The notes beneath the pieces were generated by a model. The model was not told the DNA's origin. It was given only the letters and a program-made list of their open reading frames with translations, and searched no databases. From positions 1-32,384 of the IMG/VR virus record IMGVR_UViG_3300031898_000280: a DNA stretch of 32,384 bases; one strand, written 5' to 3'. Every line of letters begins with the position of its first letter. Position 1 is the stretch's first letter. This DNA comes from a virus. The position numbers and the translations under genes are program-made. Shown piece after piece: positions 1,990 to 31,847 of the stretch.

Positions 1990-2163
1990 TCACCTGACAA
2001 AATCGTATTTTTTTAGGAAATCTATCACGGCCTCCCTGATTACGTCGGATTTGGAGTCGAGTCCCAGCGCCTTCGCCTTGGGGCTGTCCACGAATTTGCT
2101 GACCGTGTCCAGTAATCCTTCTGGGATCTTCACCGTGGTTTGCCTTCCTTTGGTTTTCGGCAT
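1990..2163 (-). CDS. Ribbon-helix-helix DNA-binding regulator (left)
   Basis: A 57-residue protein with the ribbon-helix-helix layout: a basic N-terminus, a short strand (TTVKIPEG), helix A, a turn, and helix B (SKSDVIREAVIDFLKKY). RHH proteins bind operators as dimers through the strand. Start ATG 2163 is chosen because the divergent paralogue also begins MPK; a GTG at 2172 would add three residues. Its promoter lies in the shared 2164-2275 region, where GTTACC words cover both transcription starts, so auto-repression and repression of its divergent neighbour are likely. It resembles the RHH protein at 2276-2482 in architecture but is shorter between the helices. Confidence 0.8.
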   Translation of the reverse strand: MPKTKGRQTTVKIPEGLLDTVSKFVDSPKAKALGLDSKSDVIREAVIDFLKKYDFVR

Positions 2164-2275
2164 CTTTGACACATAGTTACCCTCGGGTTACCCGACGTAA
2201 ATAAGAATTTGGTTGCTTCTAGGTAACAACCGTTATATACCCTAGAGGACCCTTAGAGGTAACCCGTGAAACACC
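2164..2275. promoter_or_regulatory. Divergent promoter/operator between two RHH genes
   Basis: The leftward TATA box is the complement of TAAATAAG (around 2198-2205). The rightward TATA is GTTATATAC (2232-2240). Operator words: GTTACCC at 2176-2182 and 2187-2193, and the inverted form GGTAAC at 2222-2227 and 2258-2263. The word at 2187 lies in a perfect odd-centred palindrome CGGGTTACCCG (2184-2194). CTTCTAGGTAAC (2216-2227) and TACCCTAGAGG (2238-2248) recur, direct or inverted, in the promoter at 19105-19230. The sites overlap the expected transcription starts, as expected for repression. Confidence 0.75.
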
Positions 2276-2482
2276 TTGCCGAAAGGTAAAACAGGGAAGA
2301 AACGGAGGACGGCTGCGGTCAAAATGGATCGGGAGCTGATTCCTCCCATGAAGAAACTAATTGCTCGTGTTAAGGATGGCTTTGGCCGGCAAAAATACGC
2401 AAGTGTCTCCGAGGCTGTCACCGAAGCCGTCGAAGATTTTCTAAAGAAGCATCGGGAAGGACGGGGGACGGCTGAATGGTGA
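2276..2482 (+). CDS. Ribbon-helix-helix DNA-binding regulator (right)
   Basis: A 68-residue basic protein with a Lys/Arg-rich N-terminus (MPKGKTGKKRR), a strand (TAAVKMDREL), helix A (PPMKKLIARV) and helix B (SVSEAVTEAVEDFLKKH), the usual RHH arrangement. TTG at 2276 is the only start that keeps the strand in frame; the preceding GTG reads into a stop. The TATA box at 2232-2240 implies a short leader. It is the first gene of the rightward early operon, and its promoter carries operator words also found before the structural operon. It is a plausible master repressor or activator; which RHH protein binds which site is unknown. Confidence 0.8.
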   Translation: MPKGKTGKKRRTAAVKMDRELIPPMKKLIARVKDGFGRQKYASVSEAVTEAVEDFLKKHREGRGTAEW

Positions 2483-5754: not shown

Positions 5755-5979
5755 TTAGCCTATTAGACTGCTGAGCTCTCTGATTTCTTTTTCCTCTATC
5801 TTTTCTTTTTTCGGTATGGTGGATGGTTTTCTGCCCCATGAGCGATACTCCGACTTGACTATTTCGCAGCGATGAATCTCAAAGTCGTGCTGCGTATAGA
5901 AGGTGCAGTTGCATTTCATGCATTTGAACGGTGGTGCTGACGGTGATGGTGGTGATGATGATGCTATGTTACTCGACAT
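5755..5979 (-). CDS. C2H2-type zinc-finger protein
   Basis: About 74 residues from the ATG at 5979 (a GTG at 5988 adds three). A Ser/Pro/Ala-rich start is followed by one classical C2H2 finger (FKCMKCNCTFYTQHDFEIHRC: C-x2-C, then H-x4-H) and a Lys/Glu-rich tail. Single archaeal C2H2 fingers usually bind DNA, so this may be a small regulator. It is the last gene of the leftward operon. Its start lies in three tandem 16-bp repeats, each of which carries an ATG-like CATATG core. Confidence 0.75.
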   Translation of the reverse strand: MSSNIASSSPPSPSAPPFKCMKCNCTFYTQHDFEIHRCEIVKSEYRSWGRKPSTIPKKEKIEEKEIRELSSLIG

Positions 5980-6018
5980 ATATGTCACTCAACATATGTG
6001 TTACTCAACATATGTGTC
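5971..6018. repeat. Three tandem 16-bp repeats
   Basis: Three head-to-tail copies of a 16-base unit at 5971-5986, 5987-6002 and 6003-6018. Units 2 and 3 differ only in the last base (ACTCAACATATGTGTT/C); unit 1 is a diverged copy. Each contains the palindrome ACATATGT or a close form. They straddle the start codon of the zinc-finger gene and the stop of the gene before it, so they could be an operator array or could tune translation starts. Confidence 0.8.
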
Positions 6019-6148
6019 ACCGGTTAGAGATTTTGAAGAATCCTCTTCCTTCGCAAATCCAGCAAGTTACGACAATCAAGGATGGACCGACGAAGACTTT
6101 CATTGTTTTCTGCGCAAGACACATGGGGCAGATTTCATAGAAAATCAA
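6017..6148 (-). CDS. Mini zinc-ribbon protein
   Basis: A 43-residue ORF starting with TTG inside the end of the methyltransferase gene (overlap 14 bases). Two CxxC knuckles are visible: CPMC near the start and CWIC after a strand-rich stretch (KVFVGPSLIVVTC). This is a minimal rubredoxin-like zinc ribbon. Its stop lies at the edge of the 16-bp repeats, and the C2H2 gene follows. Function unknown; probably protein or nucleic-acid binding. Confidence 0.55.
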   Translation of the reverse strand: MIFYEICPMCLAQKTMKVFVGPSLIVVTCWICEGRGFFKISNR

Positions 6149-11036: not shown

Positions 11037-11500
11037 AGTTCCTCCTCCTTTGTTGCCTCCTCAAAATCCTCTTGCTCAGAAGAGTCGGGCTCGCTGTTGC
11101 GTTCTCTCGCAGCCATGTAAGCCTGCATAGCCGTTAGGAAGTCTTTGAAGGCTCGAAAGGCAGATATCTTGAAAGCCATCTCGACACGGTTCCATTTACC
11201 TCGGTAGCCCTTGCTTGGATGATACACTGAGAACATGTAATCCTCCTGTGTGGCAATCTGGACTTTGATCTCGTAGGGTGGAGCGGTCAAAGCCTCGGTG
11301 TCATGCTCGATCAGAGTGATGAATCCCTGAACGTTTCTGATTAGAAGCCTGTATCCTCTGCCTGCCTTCATGGCGTCGCTGATTTGTTTCTGGACTAGAG
11401 GCACGTCTCGCGCCCGAATCTGCAGAATCACCGCAGTAGCTTCTAACGGGACTTCGACGACGGGTTTGTAGAGCTTCCTGTAATGCGTTCGCTCAGGCAT
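11033..11500 (-). CDS. Hypothetical protein in replication operon
   Basis: A 155-residue protein with a beta-rich core (LEATAVILQIRARDVPLV, YEIKVQIATQEDYMFSV), a helix near 110-135 and a strongly acidic tail (DSSEQEDFEEATKEEE). An acidic C-terminus is common in single-strand-binding or recombination mediator proteins, and it sits next to a Cas4-like nuclease, but no motif decides this. The ATG has a GGAGGA site and overlaps the previous gene by 8 bases. Confidence 0.6.
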   Translation of the reverse strand: MPERTHYRKLYKPVVEVPLEATAVILQIRARDVPLVQKQISDAMKAGRGYRLLIRNVQGFITLIEHDTEALTAPPYEIKVQIATQEDYMFSVYHPSKGYRGKWNRVEMAFKISAFRAFKDFLTAMQAYMAARERNSEPDSSEQEDFEEATKEEEL

Positions 11501-12824
11501 GTTTCTTGCATTCCTCCTGAAACTCGCAGAGGTTGCAAAGCCAAGCCGTGCATTTTCGACTCGGCGGGATTCCTTTCTTCAGAGCTTCATCCAGTTCCTT
11601 TGCTCTCGCGGAGAGATTCGCAAGCTGGTCGTTAACGTTGCAGGGTTCAGCGTCGAAATTTACGACTCTATGCTCAGCGCTCTTCGTCTTAGACAGATAC
11701 GGGATCTTGATTGATCTGACGCGACTGAAAAGCCACGGCTTTATGCGCATACCGAGCGCATAGTAGCTTTGAGCTTGAAACAGATGGTCCTCCTCTGGAA
11801 CATTACGCATCAAGATGAAACGCGTTGTTGCGTAGGTCTTGATCTCAAGAAGGAAGCCCTGTCTGATGTCTACAACGTCTGCGCTGCCTACAATTCGTAG
11901 ACCCTGTTGAGTAGTGAAGGAAAGGAAAATCTCTATCTCAGTCTTGCCGTAGCGCGATTGAATATGCTTGTGCGCTGCGGTGCCCCACCAGAAATCAAGC
12001 GCTTCATCCCAAGCCTTAGCGTAGCTAATGGTTCGCTCGAAGAACGCATGCCTAATATTAGTCAACTCAGTAACATGATACTCGCCGGGTCTGACAGGTC
12101 GAGGCTCCATCGTGGTCCTTATCGCAAGCAACGGACAATTCGACGTAGCCTGAACGTCGTCGCAGGCGAAGCATTGATCAAAGCTTATCTCGCCTTTCGC
12201 TGGACATTTGATTCGGTCCCAGCCCATCTTACGTAAAGTTAGGATGTGCGCATCTTCACGGTCAAGTTTGAATAGCCATTTGATTACTCGCTCAGGAAAG
12301 CTTTCGCTGATAGCACCGAAGTAATGGAGCAGCTCATGAACGATGCCGATTCCAAAATTGTCGAGAAGGATCTTCACCGGGTCCACGGCTTTACGGACGT
12401 CGGGTTCCATCCGTCGCCAGTTTCTCCACGCGGCCGCAGTAAGATCCTCCATGTATAGTTCAGGCTTGACACCTTTGAGCGCGCTGCCTACAATGAGGCG
12501 TCTGCGTTTCATATGCGTCGTAAACTCGACAAGGCTTAGCAGCGGGGATTTTGTCATTTCGATTCCTTCCTTACAAGTTCCACGAGAATCAGTTGTCCCT
12601 CTATGAGCCGCTTGTTCAGTCAAAGTTTCAAGCAGAGCCAGCTTCTCGCGGAGATAGCGGAAAGAAACGAATTGATGCGTCGGATTTGTGATCTCTGATA
12701 GCAGCCCCGTCAAAGCATAGGTGACAGAATTGTCGTTTGATAGCGCAAAGTCTAGTGCTAGCTCATGGATCTTGTCAAGCAGGTAATGCTGCTCGTGGCT
12801 GCAGAAGCGTCTGATGCGGTTCAT
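11493..12824 (-). CDS. Cas4/RecB-like PD-(D/E)XK nuclease with Cys clusters
   Basis: A 443-residue protein. The C-terminal ~200 residues match Cas4/RecB-type nucleases: His286 (WWGTAAHKHIQ), Asp316 (IVGSADVVD), Glu327 and Lys329 (LLEIKTY), Gln350/352-SYY, and the end cluster Cys425, Cys430, Cys433, Cys439, likely an Fe-S cluster. A second group, Cys207, Cys218, Cys221, Cys230, sits before the nuclease and may bind zinc. The N-terminal ~240 residues are unrecognised. It likely resects or processes DNA ends for recombination and replication. An internal ATG with an AAGGAAGGA site (residue 90) could give a shorter form. Confidence 0.8.
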   Translation of the reverse strand: MNRIRRFCSHEQHYLLDKIHELALDFALSNDNSVTYALTGLLSEITNPTHQFVSFRYLREKLALLETLTEQAAHRGTTDSRGTCKEGIEMTKSPLLSLVEFTTHMKRRRLIVGSALKGVKPELYMEDLTAAAWRNWRRMEPDVRKAVDPVKILLDNFGIGIVHELLHYFGAISESFPERVIKWLFKLDREDAHILTLRKMGWDRIKCPAKGEISFDQCFACDDVQATSNCPLLAIRTTMEPRPVRPGEYHVTELTNIRHAFFERTISYAKAWDEALDFWWGTAAHKHIQSRYGKTEIEIFLSFTTQQGLRIVGSADVVDIRQGFLLEIKTYATTRFILMRNVPEEDHLFQAQSYYALGMRIKPWLFSRVRSIKIPYLSKTKSAEHRVVNFDAEPCNVNDQLANLSARAKELDEALKKGIPPSRKCTAWLCNLCEFQEECKKHA

Positions 12825-14311
12825 CAGGCTCCCTCCCCGAGGTCGAGTAGCCAGAGCAATGGGCGCTGTCCGAGCCGATTATCGTCAGATCGGGATGTTT
12901 CAGCCCTGTTCTCGCTAGAAACGGTCTTTCTGGTCAGCAATGGGTACTTCTCATGTGTGTTTTCTCCATTGAGAATTGACCAGACTTGTCCGGTTATGGG
13001 GTCAACAAACGCTTCGCTCGGGTCTAGAGGCAGGTCTGGTATATCTAAAACACACACCAACCCGTTGTCATTCAGCCATGAATCGAGCTTCTCCTTGCCG
13101 AACTCGCTTAAATCATCCAGAACATTCGATATTCGGCTTGTTTCATCCTTCTCCTCCCCTCTAACAAGGCTGTACTGGTAAGGTTTGGTTGATTCATCGC
13201 ATAGGACGAAGCCTCTACTCTCCAAGACTTTGAGCAGGCCACGCGCAAGATCCTGCCCCACATCCATTGCCGCTGCAATGTCCCGTGCGGTCATGGCTTT
13301 GCTAGGTTGGAAGCAACGCAGTGCCCTGATCGCGCGGTCCTGTAGGCCCAGAAGCGTCTGCCTCATTGTTTGATCAGCAATCGCCCAAGCCATGTAGAAA
13401 TCAACTGGCAAGGCAACGATGAACCTGCCTATTGCGGTCTTTTCTGCGGCCGGCATCTTCTCCTTCTGTGCGACAATCATTCGTTGATGTTGATGTATGA
13501 ACGCAACGGACCAGATGAGTCTGCATAGTTTGCGAAAGTCTCGACGCGCCTCAACTTTCTTATGAGCGAAAATCTTCTTCAGGTCTGCGGCGTAAGGGAT
13601 CAATACTCGGTCTGCTACTTGCTTGGAGCCAAAGGATTCCGCAAAGAACGCAACGATCTCCTCGTCTGGTTTCCTTTCAGTTAGGGGATTCGGAGTGCTA
13701 ACGTCCTCCACGATGAAGTCGAGGACCTTGTCGGTCTGCGCCTCGGACTCATCCATGCTCAAAATCATAAGTCTATTCAAGAGTTCTTGATCTGGCTGGA
13801 CACTGGTCGTTGTCGTGAAGAATACAGGGATGCCCGTCGTATGCATCTCAGCCGTCTTGATCTTGCCCGTTTTCTCCTCACGTTCCGTTGTAAGGAGATG
13901 CAGTCCTCCCTCGCTGATCCAAACACGGATCTTCGACTGAGCAGCCTCGATGCCACCGATCTCTTGGACTACAAGTATCTTGCCGCTGAAGTTGCCTTGA
14001 AGCCTATCCGGGCTGGCGCCGGTGATCCTCGTATAATCTTTCACAAGCCCGAGTTTCTTGAAGTAACCCAGCGTCTGATTTAGAAGGTGGCTCTTACCTG
14101 CGCTACTTGCGCCCGTAATGACGGCGCCTTGGGGATCTTTACTAAAGACGGTGTTGGCTTCAACCAAGACCGTAAGTTTGTTCTTGTCTTCGCCGGCAAT
14201 TCGCTTATCGAGATCCAGTTTGATCTTATACAAAACAGCCGGATCTCTAGCTAGCGCCGGCAACCCATCGGAATCTTTATTTTCGGGTATTTTCTCTCCT
14301 GTTTCTTGCAC
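12824..14311 (-). CDS. AAA+/helicase-type ATPase with winged helix
   Basis: A 495-residue ATPase, probably the replication helicase or initiator. Walker A is GASSAGKSHL (67-76); the Walker B position reads KILVVQEIGG (Gln116-Glu117, where Asp-Glu is usual); sensor-1 stretch FFTTTTS; Arg180 (LLNRLMILSMDES) may be a sensor or arginine finger. A winged-helix segment around residues 335-385 (MTARDIAAAMDVG...SRGFVL) could bind DNA. This layout is known from phage and plasmid ATPases that accompany primases; no primase was seen here. The GTG start has a GGAGG site 7 bases upstream. It is the first gene of the operon, beside an iteron-like tract. Confidence 0.8.
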   Translation of the reverse strand: MQETGEKIPENKDSDGLPALARDPAVLYKIKLDLDKRIAGEDKNKLTVLVEANTVFSKDPQGAVITGASSAGKSHLLNQTLGYFKKLGLVKDYTRITGASPDRLQGNFSGKILVVQEIGGIEAAQSKIRVWISEGGLHLLTTEREEKTGKIKTAEMHTTGIPVFFTTTTSVQPDQELLNRLMILSMDESEAQTDKVLDFIVEDVSTPNPLTERKPDEEIVAFFAESFGSKQVADRVLIPYAADLKKIFAHKKVEARRDFRKLCRLIWSVAFIHQHQRMIVAQKEKMPAAEKTAIGRFIVALPVDFYMAWAIADQTMRQTLLGLQDRAIRALRCFQPSKAMTARDIAAAMDVGQDLARGLLKVLESRGFVLCDESTKPYQYSLVRGEEKDETSRISNVLDDLSEFGKEKLDSWLNDNGLVCVLDIPDLPLDPSEAFVDPITGQVWSILNGENTHEKYPLLTRKTVSSENRAETSRSDDNRLGQRPLLWLLDLGEGA

Positions 14312-14327
14312 GGTTTAGCCTCCGTGC

Positions 14328-14379
14328 CCGTTCGGGGCAGGTAGGGCGATGAGTCACATCTTCTCCCTGCCCCGGACGG
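14328..14379. promoter_or_regulatory. Inverted repeat in the ATPase leader
   Basis: 14-base arms (14328-14341 and 14366-14379) match at 13 of 14 positions, with a 24-base loop. The core GGGGCAGG pairs with CCTGCCCC. The predicted transcription start from the TATA box at 14402-14411 falls at about 14381, so the hairpin would sit at the very 5' end of the leftward mRNA, just before the GGAGG ribosome site. It could be an RNA hairpin controlling translation or an operator at the start site. Confidence 0.65.
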
Positions 14380-14399
14380 TAGCCTACGCTAGCCCTAGT

Positions 14400-14415
14400 T
14401 GCCTTATTTAAGAAA
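14400..14415 (-). promoter_or_regulatory. TATA box of the leftward replication operon
   Basis: On the minus strand the sequence reads TTTCTTAAATAAGG, a good archaeal BRE/TATA match, about 90 bases before the GTG of the ATPase gene. No other A/T-rich box lies between it and the gene. Confidence 0.6.
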
Positions 14416-14418
14416 AAC

Positions 14419-14531
14419 GCGAGTACACTAGTCGATCAGTAGCGCAGTCTGATAGTGTACCAGTCTGCGAGTACACTAGACTGCTTAACTGTTAGACTAT
14501 TCGACTGCTTAACTGTTTGACCGATAGACTA
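14419..14531. repeat. Iteron-like direct repeats (origin or operator)
   Basis: GCGAGTACACTAG occurs at 14419-14431 and 14467-14479, with an inverted AGTGTAC at 14454-14460 between them. GACTGCTTAACTGTT occurs at 14479-14493 and 14503-14517 (24-base period). TAGACTA-type words recur at 14493-14499 and 14525-14531. The tract adjoins the promoter of the helicase-like gene, the usual place for a replication origin, but it also overlaps the 3' end of the zinc-ribbon gene at 14509. Confidence 0.75.
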
Positions 14532-14775
14532 GCAGGCTGGATCTCTTGACCATGACGACTCCTAAGTTAAGCTGCGCTACTTTCGGCATTACGCGATTTA
14601 GACGGGTCACCTTCGGAACAACGCGCAGCCGTCGACCGCAGAAAGGACAGCAGGGCAGAGAGCCCCGAACTGCTTCTTCTTTGCGTATCCAGCCACGCCC
14701 CTCTCCTACGCTTCTAGGAGAGCAGTGCCGGCACCAGTACCGGGTCTCGTACCAGCTCTGTCCTTTACGGGGCAT
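14509..14775 (-). CDS. Zinc-ribbon protein
   Basis: An 88-residue basic protein with two Cys pairs (CRHC at 15-18 and CPFC at about 43-46, CPFCGRRLRVV), a zinc ribbon. A short duplicated segment follows (PKVTRLNRV / PKVAQLNLG). The ATG overlaps the end of the upstream membrane gene by 11 bases and has a GGAAG site. It is the last gene of the second leftward operon, and its C-terminal codons lie within the iteron-like tract. Confidence 0.6.
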   Translation of the reverse strand: MPRKGQSWYETRYWCRHCSPRSVGEGRGWIRKEEAVRGSLPCCPFCGRRLRVVPKVTRLNRVMPKVAQLNLGVVMVKRSSLLVYRSNS

Positions 14776-17259: not shown

Positions 17260-17592
17260 CTACCCTAGCCACGCGCCGCATTGATCGCAGAATCTATCTG
17301 AAGCGGCAACAGGCCGACCGCATTGGCAAGCGAAACTCCAAGCACGCCTCCTCCTTCGCAGCGCTGCAGGTATTTTGATTAGTCCACGCCAACCAAGACC
17401 AATCAGGAAAGCCACAAGATAGAGATGCGGCGCTTGCACGCCTAACAACTCGCCTAAGCCGAAAGGAACGAGAAGTCCGAGAATGGCGCCGACCACCGTA
17501 TCCTCAAGGAGGTCCGAAGGAATTTTTCTTTGCGCGATCTGACGCACAACCACGCCGAGAAAGGCAAAGAGGACGCATGCGGTTTCTAGCAT
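17260..17592 (-). CDS. Membrane protein with C-terminal zinc ribbon
   Basis: A 110-residue protein with two to three hydrophobic segments (residues 2-16, 33-50, 57-70), a basic patch (ALRRRRRAW) and a C-terminal zinc ribbon CQCG...CDQCGAWL. Membrane-anchored zinc ribbons are common in archaea. With the papain-like peptidase directly upstream (7-base overlap), a holin-like role is possible, though the ribbon is unusual for holins. Confidence 0.6.
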   Translation of the reverse strand: MLETACVLFAFLGVVVRQIAQRKIPSDLLEDTVVGAILGLLVPFGLGELLGVQAPHLYLVAFLIGLGWRGLIKIPAALRRRRRAWSFACQCGRPVAASDRFCDQCGAWLG

Positions 17593-18518
17593 GGTCCTCC
17601 TCTCCTTATCCGTTTCGCCGTCGTGAAGGCGCAGTTGAAGTAATCCAGCACGCAGCTAAACACCTGCCAAAGATCATCCGCATCCTGTATGCAAGCCATG
17701 AGTTGTTCTTCGCATGATTTTGGTTGTGGCTGCGGGCGGCCGCTCCAATCGGCTTTTACGACATGCGCGTCGTATCCTCCATCCTTCTTTGCGCGGTCGA
17801 TTGCTTTGAAGGGCATGTAACATTTGCCCCTATCACCCCAATATATGCCCCAACTGTTTGCGACGAAAAGACGGGCGGTCTCGACATCGTAGCCGTAGAA
17901 ACAGACTTCATGTCCGCCAGCGATTTCCTCGTTTGCCTCTGGCACTGGAAGTAAGCCGTTTGACCCGACGTAGAGCCATGATTTATACCAAGGCATGCCT
18001 ATGCTCACAGGGTTGCCGGCTGCGAGTGCGCCGCAAATTCCGTCGAGCCCGTCGACGACGCGTGAATATGATATAATCGGATAGTCTTTTGCTTTCGGTG
18101 CGTTTGGATGAGCGCTTGCCGGCCGGTCACTATCAACAAGAGCAAAGTATCGCCAGAAAGATTCGAGAAGGCACCCATACTTCCGCAGAAACTCAAAAGC
18201 GTCACGAGGATACGCGCCCTCCTCGCCTAGTCGTCCCTCAAGCTCCCGTGCACCGTTGTAAATCCACCTCGGCCCAAACCACTCCGAGAAAACATTCTGC
18301 GCCTTAGCGTGCATCGTGAGATTGATGCCGACCCCAAAACCAACGCAAGATCCTTCTTGTCCCTGATCTCGAATGTTCGGCAATAAAGCAGACAGGTCGA
18401 CAAAGTCGGGGATCTTGATGATTGGAGGCACTCGGTAATAGTAGTCGCGTGGGTCGAACTCGTCTTTCAGCCAGCCGAAGCCCGGCCAGCCGAAGCCCAG
18501 CCGAGACTCATGAGTCAA
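17586..18518 (-). CDS. Papain-like (C1A) cysteine peptidase
   Basis: A 310-residue protein with the full papain catalytic set: oxyanion Gln52 and nucleophile Cys58 (DQGQEGSCVGFG), His203 (GGHEVCFYGYD) and Asn221 (VANSWGIYWGDRG). There is no signal peptide or long propeptide; a Cys-containing C-terminal extension of ~60 residues follows the core. It would cleave protein, perhaps the S-layer or envelope proteins at release, or viral proteins. The TTG start has a GAGGGG site 6 bases upstream. Its neighbours are small membrane proteins and a peptidase-like protein. Confidence 0.88.
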   Translation of the reverse strand: MTHESRLGFGWPGFGWLKDEFDPRDYYYRVPPIIKIPDFVDLSALLPNIRDQGQEGSCVGFGVGINLTMHAKAQNVFSEWFGPRWIYNGARELEGRLGEEGAYPRDAFEFLRKYGCLLESFWRYFALVDSDRPASAHPNAPKAKDYPIISYSRVVDGLDGICGALAAGNPVSIGMPWYKSWLYVGSNGLLPVPEANEEIAGGHEVCFYGYDVETARLFVANSWGIYWGDRGKCYMPFKAIDRAKKDGGYDAHVVKADWSGRPQPQPKSCEEQLMACIQDADDLWQVFSCVLDYFNCAFTTAKRIRRGGPC

Positions 18519-19104: not shown

Positions 19105-19230
19105 GGCTGATCAGCGAAGTAACCTCTAGGGTACCTTGCATATTTAAGGGTACCGAGCTGAAAACCGAGCATACGGTACTTTTTTAAGGTATCTTCTAGG
19201 TTACCTAAGGCAGAACTGGCGATCAAAGGC
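19105..19230. promoter_or_regulatory. Divergent promoter/operator of SSB-like and structural operons
   Basis: The leftward TATA is the complement of CATATTTAAG (19139-19148); the rightward TATA is TTTTTTAAGG (19180-19189). Operator words: GTAACCTCTAGGGTACC (19119-19135), GGGTACC (19148-19154), CGGTACT (19174-19180) and CTTCTAGGTTACCTAAGG (19193-19210), the last containing the odd-centred palindrome TAGGTTACCTA. CTTCTAGGTNAC and TACCCTAGAGG are shared with the RHH promoter at 2164-2275. Confidence 0.75.
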
Positions 19231-27096: not shown

Positions 27097-29271
27097 GTGA
27101 GTTTTAGCGATAACGAAATCAAGATTGTTGTTTCGGCTGCGAACAAGGCGTCTCCGATTTTCAAGGAGATCGCTAAGGATTCGCAGGCTGCTTTCAGGGA
27201 GATAGAGCAGAGCAGCCAAACCCATAACCGCACCTTAAACATCACTCGGGAGAACTATAAGGAAGTCCGCAAAGAGCTGATAGAGAACAATCGCTACCTC
27301 AAAACCTTGAAGATGTCCTATCAGGATCAAACGCAGACTTTAGGGCTAGCAGCTGACGCGTTCAACAAGCTTGGCAACGTTGTCGGTAAAGCACAAACAA
27401 TGTATACGCAGTACAACGTCGCCATGATCAAGACGAACCAGCTCCAGAAAGAAGTCAAAGACGCGCAGGAGAAGTATAACGAAGCAGTCGCAAAGTTCGG
27501 GCCAGACTCGCAGCAAGCTCGAAAAGCTCAGGAGGAGCTGGCAGAATCAACACGAAAGCTCGCGGATGCTCAGAAACAGAATACTCTGCAGCTCATAGGC
27601 TTCGCTGCGCAGATGCCCAGCTTCCTGAAAGGCATATTGGATATGCGAACAAGCTTCATGCTCCTCGCAAGCCAACTAAAAAATACGGATATTGTCGGCT
27701 GGGCAAGGGCCGGTGGAGCTGCAATATCATCCATGGTTTCCTCTGCTACGGCCTCACTTGGTAGTTTGATCGGTACGCTGGGTTTGGTCGGTATGGCGAT
27801 TGGCACCTTCATAATCGGTGTCCAGAAACACAACGAGTTCGTCGCTCAAATGTCCGAGTCTTATGGTTTGACATATGGAGAAATGGGTCGACTCACCATA
27901 AGGGCGAGGATTCTCGGCATATCTGTTTGGGAACTAATCGACGCAGTGAAAGCCGGGAAGATTGAGCTTTCCAAATTCGGAGACGAATATGTCGAAATAG
28001 AGAGGAAGATTCGGAAGACTCCTGTTGTGCCCGGCACGCCTGCGGTTCCTACGGTGACCGCTCCCAACATAGTGACGCCAACCGATGTTTCGCCTACGGT
28101 CTCGGCTGTGCCGACAACAATTATGCCTACAACGAAGCTGATCACTGCCGAGGAGGCAAAACTGTTCACGCCACAGCAACTTTACAACGTTCAATCAATG
28201 AAGTATTGGGTTGAGGAATATCGCGAACAGATTGACAAATTAAGAGACGAATATGATTTCGGAAATCTGAGCCTCAGTGAATATTTGCAGAAGGTTAAAG
28301 CGCTTGAAAACAAAATCTCCATCCTCAACAGGCTGATCAACAAAGAATCATCGTCTTTCGACGATCTCTCCGACACGATGAGGCAGACTGGCACGGTGAA
28401 GTCGGGGCTTGAATCTAACTTTGGAACTTTGAGCGGCATCATGGGTCAGAACATTGTTACCGCAGGAAACCTCGGCTCCGCCTTCGGGAACCTTGGCTCG
28501 CAGTTTCAATGGGCGAACACCATGCTATCCCAGTTCGGTTCGACCCAGCAGACCGTTATGGGCTACACGCAGCAGGCAGGAAACATTCAAGTTCCATCCG
28601 CACCCGGAATGCCTGCAGCGCTATCATCGGGAGCATGGTCGAATCTTGGAAAGTTTGCTACCGGCGCCATTCAGACCGCTGCGACCGCAGTTACCCCGAT
28701 GATTCAGCAACTGCCTAAACTTGCGAACATGGCAAGCAACATGATCAATGTAGCAGCGAACACTGCGCAGACGATGGTTCCAGCTATGCTTGGCATGAGC
28801 AACATTCCAATGGTGAATAAGATGCTCACCGGCACCATGAACATGGGCATCCTGCCTTCTCTTCCAAGCCTGACGAACATAGTGTCCTCATCTGTTTCGC
28901 CAACCTTCTCGAACATCGGCAGCTCCATTGTAAACTCAATCACGGGTATTGGGCAATCCATCACCAATACATTGAGTTCCATCTTCAAGCCATCCGTGAC
29001 AGCTCCTCCTCCATTGCTGCCACCAACATATGAGGCGCTGCAGGAAGGAGGAATCGTCACAGGACCAACATGGGCCCTGCTTGGAGAACACGGGCAAAGG
29101 GAAGCCGTGGTTCCTCTTCCCCGAGGAAAACTTGAAGCGATCAGCGAGATCAATGTGCCCATCTCAATCCGCAGCCTACAAGTCTCAAACAGACGGGAAA
29201 TGACGCATTTCATGCGCGAGGTCGAAAGAGCAATCGCAAGAGAAAGCAGATACAGGAGCGCAATCGCATGA
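27097..29271 (+). CDS. Tape measure protein
   Basis: A 724-residue protein. A helical N-terminus with coiled coil (residues ~10-170) leads to a hydrophobic stretch (about 214-245, SLIGTLGLVGMAIGTFIIG), a Pro/Thr-rich linker (308-348), Met/Ala/Gln-rich helices and the C-terminal GGIVTGPTWALLGEHGQREAVVP (651-673), a signature of tape measure proteins. At about 1.5 angstrom per residue it would set a tail near 110 nm. GTG start with GAGGTAA upstream. Its stop overlaps the hub start. Confidence 0.88.
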   Translation: MSFSDNEIKIVVSAANKASPIFKEIAKDSQAAFREIEQSSQTHNRTLNITRENYKEVRKELIENNRYLKTLKMSYQDQTQTLGLAADAFNKLGNVVGKAQTMYTQYNVAMIKTNQLQKEVKDAQEKYNEAVAKFGPDSQQARKAQEELAESTRKLADAQKQNTLQLIGFAAQMPSFLKGILDMRTSFMLLASQLKNTDIVGWARAGGAAISSMVSSATASLGSLIGTLGLVGMAIGTFIIGVQKHNEFVAQMSESYGLTYGEMGRLTIRARILGISVWELIDAVKAGKIELSKFGDEYVEIERKIRKTPVVPGTPAVPTVTAPNIVTPTDVSPTVSAVPTTIMPTTKLITAEEAKLFTPQQLYNVQSMKYWVEEYREQIDKLRDEYDFGNLSLSEYLQKVKALENKISILNRLINKESSSFDDLSDTMRQTGTVKSGLESNFGTLSGIMGQNIVTAGNLGSAFGNLGSQFQWANTMLSQFGSTQQTVMGYTQQAGNIQVPSAPGMPAALSSGAWSNLGKFATGAIQTAATAVTPMIQQLPKLANMASNMINVAANTAQTMVPAMLGMSNIPMVNKMLTGTMNMGILPSLPSLTNIVSSSVSPTFSNIGSSIVNSITGIGQSITNTLSSIFKPSVTAPPPLLPPTYEALQEGGIVTGPTWALLGEHGQREAVVPLPRGKLEAISEINVPISIRSLQVSNRREMTHFMREVERAIARESRYRSAIA

Positions 29272-31847
29272 GCTACGAATTATTAGTCAATGATGTGGCA
29301 ACCGCTTTCTCACGTCTCAGTTTTCGAGATGAGTTATTGCTACCGTTTCCCTTTGAAGTCGAGGTTGCACAAGGCACGCCTCTGACGGAAGGCGATGTCG
29401 TGAAGATAAAACGAGATGGCGTATTGGCTTTCAAAGGAATCACCACCTCGAAGACTCGGGCTCTCACCGAAGTAACGCGCATCGTCAATGGCTGCGACGC
29501 TGGCTCAATCAAGCTTTCTCGTTTCTTAACCGAATTAATTGTTTTTGATGATGTTGAACCTTCACAGCTAGTTCGGTTCTTGGACATGCCCTGTCGGGAG
29601 CTTGGGGCAGGGATCATTCGAGATGGTTTTGGCTCAGATTATGACTGGAATTATTTTTCAGGATTCGGCGGAGTCTGGGAACAATGGCCGGACCTTTGGG
29701 TTCTCAAAGATACCAAGCGCACGCTGGTCGACTTTCTGCGGAGCATTCTCTATCGAACGCCAGCCGGCGATAGTCAGCAAAACTACCGAGTGGTTTGCAA
29801 GCTCAAGGTTCGCAGCTGTTGGTATGATAACGATACTAGCGATAAGGAGGTTTGTGTGGGGCTTGCGGCTCGAATTACCGATGCAAACAATTTCTATGTT
29901 GCATATATCAGCTACGAGGCCGGGACCGGCGACGTGCTTCGCATTGAGAAAGTCGTGGCTGGCGTCCGAACTGAGCTTGCAGAGAAGAAGATATCATGGG
30001 CATTCGGGGAAACCTACACTTTCACGTTCATTACTACGGGAACCTCTTTAGTTGCATATATCAATGAGATTCCCGACGCACGAGTGACCGTAACAGATTC
30101 ATCGTTTACCCAAGGCAAATATGGTTTAGTGCATGGAAACAGTCAAACCGAGTTTTTCGGTCTCAAAGTCCTGAAGATTGGAACCGCGACGGCAAGCAGC
30201 TCCGAGGCAGGTTCTTCCCCGGGCGGAGCAATTGATGGTGACTTGGTGACTTATTGGCGTGCAGGAGGCACGGAAGCATGGTGGCTTCAGTATGATCTCA
30301 CCGAAATCAAAAGCAACATCTGCGCCATACTGGTACGGCTAACACTGCGAACCGATGACGGCGACGTTAAAACCATCCCCGAAGAGCATCCTGACATCAA
30401 AATCCAAATCAGCACCGACGGCTCAGCATGGACCACCATATCGGACGATGATTGTGTTAACACTCGTGATCTGCTGAAGGTTTTCGCTCCTGCATCCGTT
30501 CGTTACGTTAAGATTCTGACCGATATTCCCTCTTATGGCCCTCGACCGAACGTCAAGAACATTCAGATTTTCGAGGCTACGGAGGGGGGATATCTCCTTG
30601 CTCTGGGAACAATTCATGACTATGAGGACGGCATCGCTTTCGAGACTCAAGACGAGAAGCGAAGCGAAGCTATACGTCGCGTAGCAGAGATGCTAGGTTG
30701 GAATGCATGGTGCGATAAAGACGAGAAGCTGAACTTCGTATATGAGAAAGGCACGTTGAGACGCAGAAGGCTGTTCCACGCCACAGCCGACGTCCACGTC
30801 TGGAAGCTGGGCCCCAACACCAATTACGGCACTGATGAGCAATGCATAGTTCGAGTCACCACAACGGCCGACCATGTTTACCGTTCCTTCTACAAGTTTG
30901 ATGTTTCCTCAGTTCCTTCAACCGTGATATTGAAGCTAGCTCAGCTCTGGTCGAACTGCCGCTGGAAGCCCGACGCTGCTCCCTTCGACGTTCAGGTGCG
31001 ACGTCCAGACGCATCGTGGGCTGAAGGCACTATAACATGGAACAATCAGCCTGCGACAACGCTTCTTTCCACAATAACAAACAACGGTGAGTTTCCCAGC
31101 CGACTGGAGATTGATGTAACCTCTGTTGTGACCGCGTGGGTAGCGGGATCGCAACCAAATTATGGGTTGATGCTGAGGCTTGTGAACGAGGCAAACGACG
31201 CTACTAGAGGATTTGGATGGTGCTCGAAAGATGGCGGGGTACCAAGATCGTGGAGCCGCAGCCGCATGCTCACACTCCTCGTTGATTATGTTACGTCTGA
31301 TAAACATGAAACAATCAAATTCGAGGAAGGACACGCCTTCCAAATCCTCGACGTCGACGACGAGGCTTACGACCTGATCTGGAAGGCGAGGCTCCTCGGC
31401 TGGGGAGAAGGTATCTATCAGCTCGCTGCGGAATATAGCGACTCAAGCATAAAGACCGCTTATCCGAATCTTGCTGCAGAGTTCAGTCGCACCGAGAAGG
31501 ATATAGTTGACCGCTATCTGCTCGCAGCACTAGCCAAACGAATCGTTGAAACCCACAAGACTCCACGCAAGTCAATCCACGTGGAATTGTCGATTGATGA
31601 TTATGCTACTGGCGCATGGGAAGCCGGCGACCTTGTAACCATCACATCCCCGACAGTCGCCCTCTCCGGCGCCCTTCGCGTAATCAGCGTGGAGAGAGAG
31701 ATGGGTGAGGAAGCTGAGGCCGTGAGGTTTGATGCGACTCCACATGAGCAGACGCATCTAATTGATCCTTCAAGCGGCCTTGAAAGTTGGCTAATTGCCC
31801 TGCGTTCCCGATTGAAGAACGTTGAGAAAATCGATCAGACGGAATGA
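29268..31847 (+). CDS. Tail hub protein with inserted sugar-binding modules
   Basis: An 859-residue protein. The N-terminus (MSYELLVNDVATAFSRLSF... EGDVVKIKRDGVLAFKGIT) and the C-terminus (VELSIDDYATGAWEAGDLVTI... LRVISVEREMGEEAEAVRF) match baseplate-hub/gpD-like proteins. Between them lie a lectin/LamG-like beta sandwich (about 168-302), a discoidin-like (F5/8 C) domain (305-437; ASSSEAGSSPGGAIDG...IQISTDGSAWTTIS), a return to hub sequence, and a DNRLRE/CBM96-like domain (500-670; DVHVWKLGPNTNYG...WAEGTITWNNQPA). These modules probably bind sugars on the host surface. It starts as ATGA overlap with the tape measure. Confidence 0.8.
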   Translation: MSYELLVNDVATAFSRLSFRDELLLPFPFEVEVAQGTPLTEGDVVKIKRDGVLAFKGITTSKTRALTEVTRIVNGCDAGSIKLSRFLTELIVFDDVEPSQLVRFLDMPCRELGAGIIRDGFGSDYDWNYFSGFGGVWEQWPDLWVLKDTKRTLVDFLRSILYRTPAGDSQQNYRVVCKLKVRSCWYDNDTSDKEVCVGLAARITDANNFYVAYISYEAGTGDVLRIEKVVAGVRTELAEKKISWAFGETYTFTFITTGTSLVAYINEIPDARVTVTDSSFTQGKYGLVHGNSQTEFFGLKVLKIGTATASSSEAGSSPGGAIDGDLVTYWRAGGTEAWWLQYDLTEIKSNICAILVRLTLRTDDGDVKTIPEEHPDIKIQISTDGSAWTTISDDDCVNTRDLLKVFAPASVRYVKILTDIPSYGPRPNVKNIQIFEATEGGYLLALGTIHDYEDGIAFETQDEKRSEAIRRVAEMLGWNAWCDKDEKLNFVYEKGTLRRRRLFHATADVHVWKLGPNTNYGTDEQCIVRVTTTADHVYRSFYKFDVSSVPSTVILKLAQLWSNCRWKPDAAPFDVQVRRPDASWAEGTITWNNQPATTLLSTITNNGEFPSRLEIDVTSVVTAWVAGSQPNYGLMLRLVNEANDATRGFGWCSKDGGVPRSWSRSRMLTLLVDYVTSDKHETIKFEEGHAFQILDVDDEAYDLIWKARLLGWGEGIYQLAAEYSDSSIKTAYPNLAAEFSRTEKDIVDRYLLAALAKRIVETHKTPRKSIHVELSIDDYATGAWEAGDLVTITSPTVALSGALRVISVEREMGEEAEAVRFDATPHEQTHLIDPSSGLESWLIALRSRLKNVEKIDQTE

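What the first reader, a model, noticed from the sequence alone, without database searches (positions are those of the whole stretch)
14328..14531. Candidate replication origin: hairpin, TATA and iterons before the AAA+ ATPase
Direct repeats GCGAGTACACTAG (2 copies, 48-base spacing) and GACTGCTTAACTGTT (2 copies, 24-base spacing) with inverted AGTGTAC and TAGACTA words lie between two leftward operons, next to a helicase-like ATPase with a winged helix. Iterons beside the initiator gene are a standard origin layout; here they are also possible operators.
Basis: partly seen in the sequence, partly recalled or inferred. Interest (0 to 1): 0.7.

Follow-up and report, generated by a model that had tools for sequence, protein, structure and literature searches.

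The report
Octamer repeat array beside viral helicase gene
Just upstream of a DNA-helicase-like gene in an archaeal tailed virus lies a run of about fifteen degenerate 8-base repeats, probably a landing strip for a protein that starts copying of the viral genome or controls that gene, and several other archaeal viruses carry similar short repeat runs upstream of their own helicase genes.

Summary
The reported words are real (GCGAGTACACTAG at 14419 and 14467, GACTGCTTAACTGTT at 14479 and 14503, an inverted GTACACTA, a strong hairpin, a weak TATA-like box), except that TAGACTA is direct, not inverted. It lies upstream of an AAA+ ATPase with a C-terminal winged helix, related to the helicase half of plasmid CHC2-TOPRIM primase-helicases (33% identity, E 3e-21) and followed by a Cas4-like nuclease gene. 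Five of eight haloviral MCM genes have short, non-codon-period tandem arrays within 220 bp upstream, against 0.6% of background windows (criterion set afterwards). An origin or initiation control region is the best single reading (0.45); a pure operator (0.35) is not excluded. GC skew gives no support, no close relative exists to test conservation, and binding cannot be tested here.

The parts
14422..14541 (.). Array of about 15 tandem, degenerate, strictly 8-bp-phased octamers, consensus AG[T/A]CTGNT
   Evidence: lag identities 0.55/0.52/0.53/0.51 at 8/16/24/32; octamer list, PWM and joint periodicity score 0.56 vs 0.43 best of 100 shuffles
14419..14431 (+).
14467..14479 (+). GCGAGTACACTAG copy 2 (48 bp = 6 octamers later)
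14453..14460 (-). inverted GTACACTA word
14479..14493 (+). GACTGCTTAACTGTT copy 1
14503..14517 (+). GACTGCTTAACTGTT copy 2 (24 bp = 3 octamers later)
14405..14412 (-). TATA-like CTTAAATA of the ATPase operon, directly downstream of the array; weak, no purine-rich BRE
   Evidence: sequence
14328..14379 (-). hairpin in the presumed leader of the ATPase mRNA; most stable 60-nt fold in the window
14308..14327 (-). small hairpin GCACGG-AGGCUAAA-CCGUGC that would hide the GGAGG ribosome site and the GUG start
12824..14311 (-). 495-aa AAA+ ATPase with C-terminal winged helix; related to the helicase half of CHC2-TOPRIM primase-helicases and to HSTV-2 gp64 / ASV1_C674
11493..12824 (-). Cas4/RecB-like PD-(D/E)XK nuclease, next gene of the operon
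14509..14775 (-). small ORF with CxxC...CPFCGRRL zinc-ribbon motif (read by eye); its 3' end overlaps the array
   Evidence: no family match above cut-off

Best explanation
A cis-acting initiation/control region for viral DNA replication. About fifteen 8-bp units (14422-14541) form a multi-site platform on which a DNA-binding protein assembles cooperatively. Most likely the neighbouring AAA+ ATPase binds through its winged helix and loads itself as a helicase, melting the short AT-rich stretch 14400-14418 or DNA nearby. Because the same platform abuts the promoter of the ATPase operon, occupancy would also damp synthesis of the initiator, and the leader hairpins would add control of translation. 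Shown: the array, its phase, its uniqueness, the gene order, the ATPase's kinship to replication helicases. Inferred: who binds, melting, origin function, autoregulation.
For: Array is real, 8-bp-phased and unique to this locus. The ATPase aligns over its AAA+ part with plasmid primase-helicases (E 3e-21; Walker A, sensor and RRD motifs shared), and its C-terminal winged helix is the one confidently modelled part. A PD-(D/E)XK nuclease gene lies close by here and in marine virus L037. The window and HSTV-2 lack a recognisable MCM, while haloviruses with MCM lack this ATPase, so it sits in the helicase slot. Haloviral MCM genes are preceded by short tandem arrays: HFTV1 ACACTAC x9, HRTV-29 ATACTATC x3, HSTV-1 GTACATT x3, BJ1 and Humcor1 11-mers; 5 of 8 against 0.6% of background windows. 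SaPI Rep and SCCmec Cch2 helicases bind short iterons next to their own genes (PMC7581432).
Against: No skew signal at 14.4 kb. No strong AT-rich unwinding element. No array beside this ATPase in HSTV-2, fuselloviruses, marine viruses or plasmids. The array abuts a promoter, as operators do. The halovirus comparison was thought of after seeing the data, and those arrays could be operators too.
Confidence: 0.45

Rival explanations
1. Pure transcriptional operator: a ribbon-helix-helix (RHH) or other small viral regulator, or the ATPase itself, coats the 8-bp array and switches the ATPase-nuclease operon, as F55-type repressors do on tandem short boxes. No role as an origin.
For: An 8-bp phase suits RHH proteins: ParG coats arrays of degenerate tetramer boxes (PMC7308502), the pSM19035 protein needs contiguous heptads (PMC9499535), SSV1 F55 binds tandem ATAGATAGAGT in viral promoters (PMC5569661); MetJ met boxes are 8 bp (own knowledge). 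The array lies directly upstream of the TATA-like word. The virus encodes an RHH protein (1990-2172, PF01402 above cut-off).
Against: The RHH gene's own upstream region carries a different word set (GGTAACC, CCTAGAGG) that recurs only in the 19.1-kb divergent promoter, so the likely regulon operator is not the octamer. Octamer-array words are absent from other promoters. Fifteen units is long for a simple operator.
Confidence: 0.35
2. The functional element is RNA: the leader hairpins (14328-14379 and 14308-14327) control translation of the ATPase, and the repeats matter little.
For: Most stable fold in the window; the second stem contains the GGAGG and the GUG start.
Against: Does not explain the array; transcription start unknown; no Rfam match.
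Confidence: 0.1
3. Centromere-like partition site for a plasmid-like or lysogenic stage.
For: Phased short arrays bound by RHH proteins are typical plasmid centromeres (PMC7308502, PMC9499535); archaeal SegB recognises TCTAGASTCTAGA, whose TCTAG/AGTCT-type words resemble the array (PMC12284271).
Against: No ParA/SegA-like ATPase among the window proteins examined; the array is next to a helicase-type ATPase; an integrase suggests integration instead. SegB sites are 13-bp palindromes, not 8-bp phased.
Confidence: 0.05

Closest known systems
SaPI Rep / SCCmec Cch2 self-loading helicase with adjacent iterons (PMC7581432)
   Same: helicase with C-terminal DNA-binding domain, short iterons beside its gene, on an integrating element
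   Different: those iterons lie downstream of the gene and are shorter or fewer; homology of the ATPases was not shown here; binding untested
CHC2-TOPRIM-AAA+ primase-helicases of bacterial plasmids (e.g. Leptospira WP_002108269, Lonsdalea WP_085690229)
   Same: homologous AAA+ helicase part and C-terminal winged-helix-like tail
   Different: the viral protein lacks the primase half; no iteron array was seen upstream of the plasmid genes
Short tandem arrays upstream of haloviral MCM genes (HFTV1, HRTV-29, HSTV-1, BJ1, Humcor1)
   Same: 7-11-bp tandem units within about 220 bp upstream of the viral helicase gene
   Different: different sequences, other copy numbers, true MCM helicases; no function for those arrays was found in the papers read
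RHH operators and centromeres: ParG/parH, pSM19035 heptads, SSV1 F55 sites
   Same: contiguous short phased boxes near a promoter
   Different: box sequence differs; binder unknown
HSTV-2 gp64 and fuselloviral ASV1_C674/SSV7_B471
   Same: homologous ATPase (23-31% identity), in HSTV-2 within the same leftward gene block as the DNA polymerase
   Different: no such array next to those genes

Membership tests
Iteron-type replication origin | cluster of phased direct repeats beside the initiator or helicase gene | tested here: met
Iteron-type replication origin | adjacent AT-rich unwinding stretch | tested here: inconclusive
   14400-14420 is 67% AT; many richer stretches elsewhere
Iteron-type replication origin | GC-skew inflection at the site (common, not obligatory) | tested here: inconclusive
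   none at 14.4 kb, but skew in this record follows gene orientation, so the test has little power
Iteron-type replication origin | sequence-specific binding of initiator and cis-dependent replication | not testable with these tools
   needs bench work
Iteron-type replication origin | conservation in close relatives | tested here: inconclusive
   no close relative found; exact-word matches in viral contigs were in viruses without any shared protein
MCM helicase (PF00493) | match to the MCM AAA+ profile | tested here: not met
   no match in the window; weak sub-threshold hits only in fuselloviral homologues; profile comparison 81% probability over the Walker A region only
AAA+ helicase part of CHC2-TOPRIM primase-helicases | homology across the AAA+ domain | tested here: met
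   E 3e-21, more than 60 invariant columns
AAA+ helicase part of CHC2-TOPRIM primase-helicases | fused primase domains | tested here: not met
   the window protein has only about 20-40 residues before its AAA+ domain
RHH-bound tandem operator/centromere | contiguous short boxes at constant phase | tested here: met
RHH-bound tandem operator/centromere | cognate RHH protein whose own promoter carries the same box | tested here: not met
   the RHH gene's promoter has other words

The most novel reading that the evidence does not exclude
Archaeal tailed viruses share an origin design: a short-period iteron array immediately upstream of the viral helicase gene, read by that helicase itself. In this virus the helicase is not MCM but a stand-alone relative of the helicase half of bacterial primase-helicases that both recognises the origin and unwinds it, so the virus would need neither an Orc1/Cdc6 nor an MCM of its own.
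Probability: 0.25. Interest if true: 0.65.

Novelty: new variant of a known kind. Interest (0 to 1): 0.48.

Why it matters
I came across no experimentally mapped replication origin of an archaeal tailed virus in the papers searched. A recognisable signature (short tandem arrays just upstream of the helicase gene) would make origin finding in these viruses testable, with a cultivable model at hand (HFTV1). It would also tie a widespread but unnamed ATPase family (phrog_12057/phrog_24043) to initiation.

Tried and rejected
Close relatives: scans of viral contigs with the ATPase, TerL, capsid, portal and a tail protein, and of genome contigs with the ATPase, found no close relative; the only hits were a remote TerL match and distant ATPase homologues. 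DNA pattern AGTACACTAG-N-AGTACACTAG in viral contigs: 7 hits, two with 8/16-bp periodicity, but in viruses without any shared protein, and the pattern itself selects for repeats, so no weight given. The AF2 model of the ATPase was poor (pLDDT 41), so fold matches (Apaf-1-like, ORC/Cdc6, dynein, RFC) only say AAA+ plus winged helix; MCM is not among the 50 rows shown, which says nothing for or against. An RHH fold for ORF 2276-2482 was not confirmed. Single-strand DNA fold of the array: z only -1.6. Third-position GC skew did not help. Rfam and tRNA: nothing.

Full report
What the window is. It is a 32,384-base IMG/VR record classed as linear. Head-and-tail genes (TerL, ClpP-like head protease, HK97 capsid distantly like HFTV1/HRTV-29/HRTV-4, a tail protein) and a tyrosine integrase mark a tailed virus; the matches of capsid and ATPase point to an archaeal host. 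No close relative was found in viral or genome contigs.

The observation. The block is the most repeat-dense place in the window (score 15; next place 12; best of 61 shuffles 8). Beside it lies the most stable 60-nt hairpin of the window.

What was missed. Self-comparison of 14414-14541 gives identities of 0.55, 0.52, 0.53, 0.51, 0.43, 0.46 at lags 8, 16, 24, 32, 40, 48, and about 0.2 at nearly all other lags below 36. Written in eights from 14422 the DNA reads AGTACACT AGTCGATC AGTAGCGC AGTCTGAT AGTGTACC AGTCTGCG AGTACACT AGACTGCT TAACTGTT AGACTATT CGACTGCT TAACTGTT TGACCGAT AGACTAGC AGGCTGGA. So the 13-mer pair (48 apart) and 15-mer pair (24 apart) are best-matching members of one octamer array. 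The joint periodicity score (0.56) is higher than anything in 100 shuffled windows (0.43) and higher than any 8-bp score in 217 kb of seven archaeal virus stretches (at most 0.48). A profile of the octamer finds no other such array (35 bits here, next place 11); note that the profile was built from the array itself.

Surroundings. The array ends at a TATA-like word (CTTAAATA, minus strand) about 95 bases before the GTG of the ATPase gene. The leader holds the big hairpin and a small one that pairs up the GGAGG and the start codon. On the other side the array runs into the last bases of a small zinc-ribbon ORF.

The ATPase. HMM libraries give only unnamed phage families and a winged helix. Against plasmids, however, it matches the C-terminal part of CHC2-TOPRIM 'DNA primases' at E 3e-21 and 33% identity, with conserved Walker A, sensor, NR and RRD motifs and a winged-helix-like tail. 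In three sampled plasmids the gene sits between a regulator and a tyrosine recombinase. Viral homologues occur in Hafunaviridae (HSTV-2 gp64), fuselloviruses and marine viruses; in marine L037 a PD-(D/E)XK nuclease lies downstream, and here a Cas4-like nuclease follows directly. No MCM is recognisable in the window or in HSTV-2, while haloviruses that carry MCM do not carry this ATPase. These facts fit a replicative helicase role; MCM kinship itself is weak.

A comparative test. A periodicity scan of reference viruses happened to put notable 7- or 8-bp arrays of HFTV1 and HRTV-29 exactly upstream of MCM. I then fetched seven more viral MCM genes. Among the eight haloviruses, five have a tandem array with period not a multiple of three and TRF score of at least 44 in the 220 bp upstream (HFTV1, HRTV-29, HSTV-1, BJ1, Humcor1); BJ1 and Humcor1 are related, so four of seven independent cases. 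In 1,438 windows of four halovirus records the rate is 0.6%, and that count includes the HFTV1 and HRTV-29 sites themselves. The binomial figure, about 5e-8, is optimistic because the criterion was set after seeing the cases and HFTV1's start codon was taken as the ATG after the array rather than the annotated start. HJTV-4, HATV-3 and BLv36 fail the test; of two non-haloviruses, MFTV1 has only an A/T-rich 14-mer pair about 200 bp upstream and Altivir_8 nothing of that score. Still, the pattern supports the idea that short arrays upstream of the helicase gene are a recurring design.

Origin or operator? For origin: locus-specific words, helicase next door, the halovirus pattern, and iteron-binding helicases in SaPI and SCCmec (PMC7581432); origins of archaeal pT26-2 plasmids, some of which carry MCM-like proteins next to a tyrosine recombinase, were likewise predicted from repeat-rich regions (PMC6972569). 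For operator: the array abuts a promoter, and short constant phasing is what ribbon-helix-helix proteins use. Against control by the recognised RHH protein: its gene (1990-2172) faces a promoter with different words (GGTAACC, CCTAGAGG), which recur only in the 19.1-kb divergent promoter. That looks like the RHH regulon, and the octamer array is not part of it. Skew neither helps nor truly refutes, as it follows gene orientation. I therefore put origin/initiation region at 0.45 and pure operator at 0.35; the two are not exclusive.

Limits. One genome, no reads, no binding data, no close relatives; the structure model of the ATPase was poor.

Noticed in passing
1990-2172 (-), 2173-2275, 2276-2482 (+), 19119-19204: An RHH gene (PF01402) and a second small RHH-like ORF diverge from 2173-2275; the words GGTAACC and CCTAGAGG there recur only in the 19.1-kb region between the two divergent operons, suggesting a regulon with shared operators.
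   Followed up: partly
5965-6020: 16-bp x 3.5 tandem repeat (TATGTCACTCAACATA unit) just upstream of a minus-strand ORF with a C2H2 zinc finger (5988-5755); a second iteron-like array in the window.
   Followed up: partly
7021-6135 (-): A D12-class adenine methyltransferase split into two overlapping ORFs (ends GSL*, restarts VNLF): frameshifted gene, assembly error or programmed frameshift.
   Followed up: no
L042 4209-4232; L043 about 30560-30620; L052 about 1068-1089; L050 and L051 upstream of mcm: Short tandem arrays (7-11 bp) upstream of MCM genes in haloarchaeal tailed viruses.
   Followed up: yes
L041 48174-48508: In HSTV-2 a 16-bp-period array lies between gp72 and gp73, near xerCD, not beside the ATPase gp64.
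   Followed up: no
17586-18518 (-): Papain-family cysteine protease (PF00112) encoded in a tailed virus.
   Followed up: no
29268-31847 (+): 859-aa tail protein with F5/8 type C and CBM96 carbohydrate-binding domains, a likely receptor-binding protein.
   Followed up: no
L044 17129-17220: Altivir_8 carries a near-perfect 10-bp T/C-rich tandem array (TTTTTCMTCT) between the PAPS reductase gene and the next ORF.
   Followed up: no
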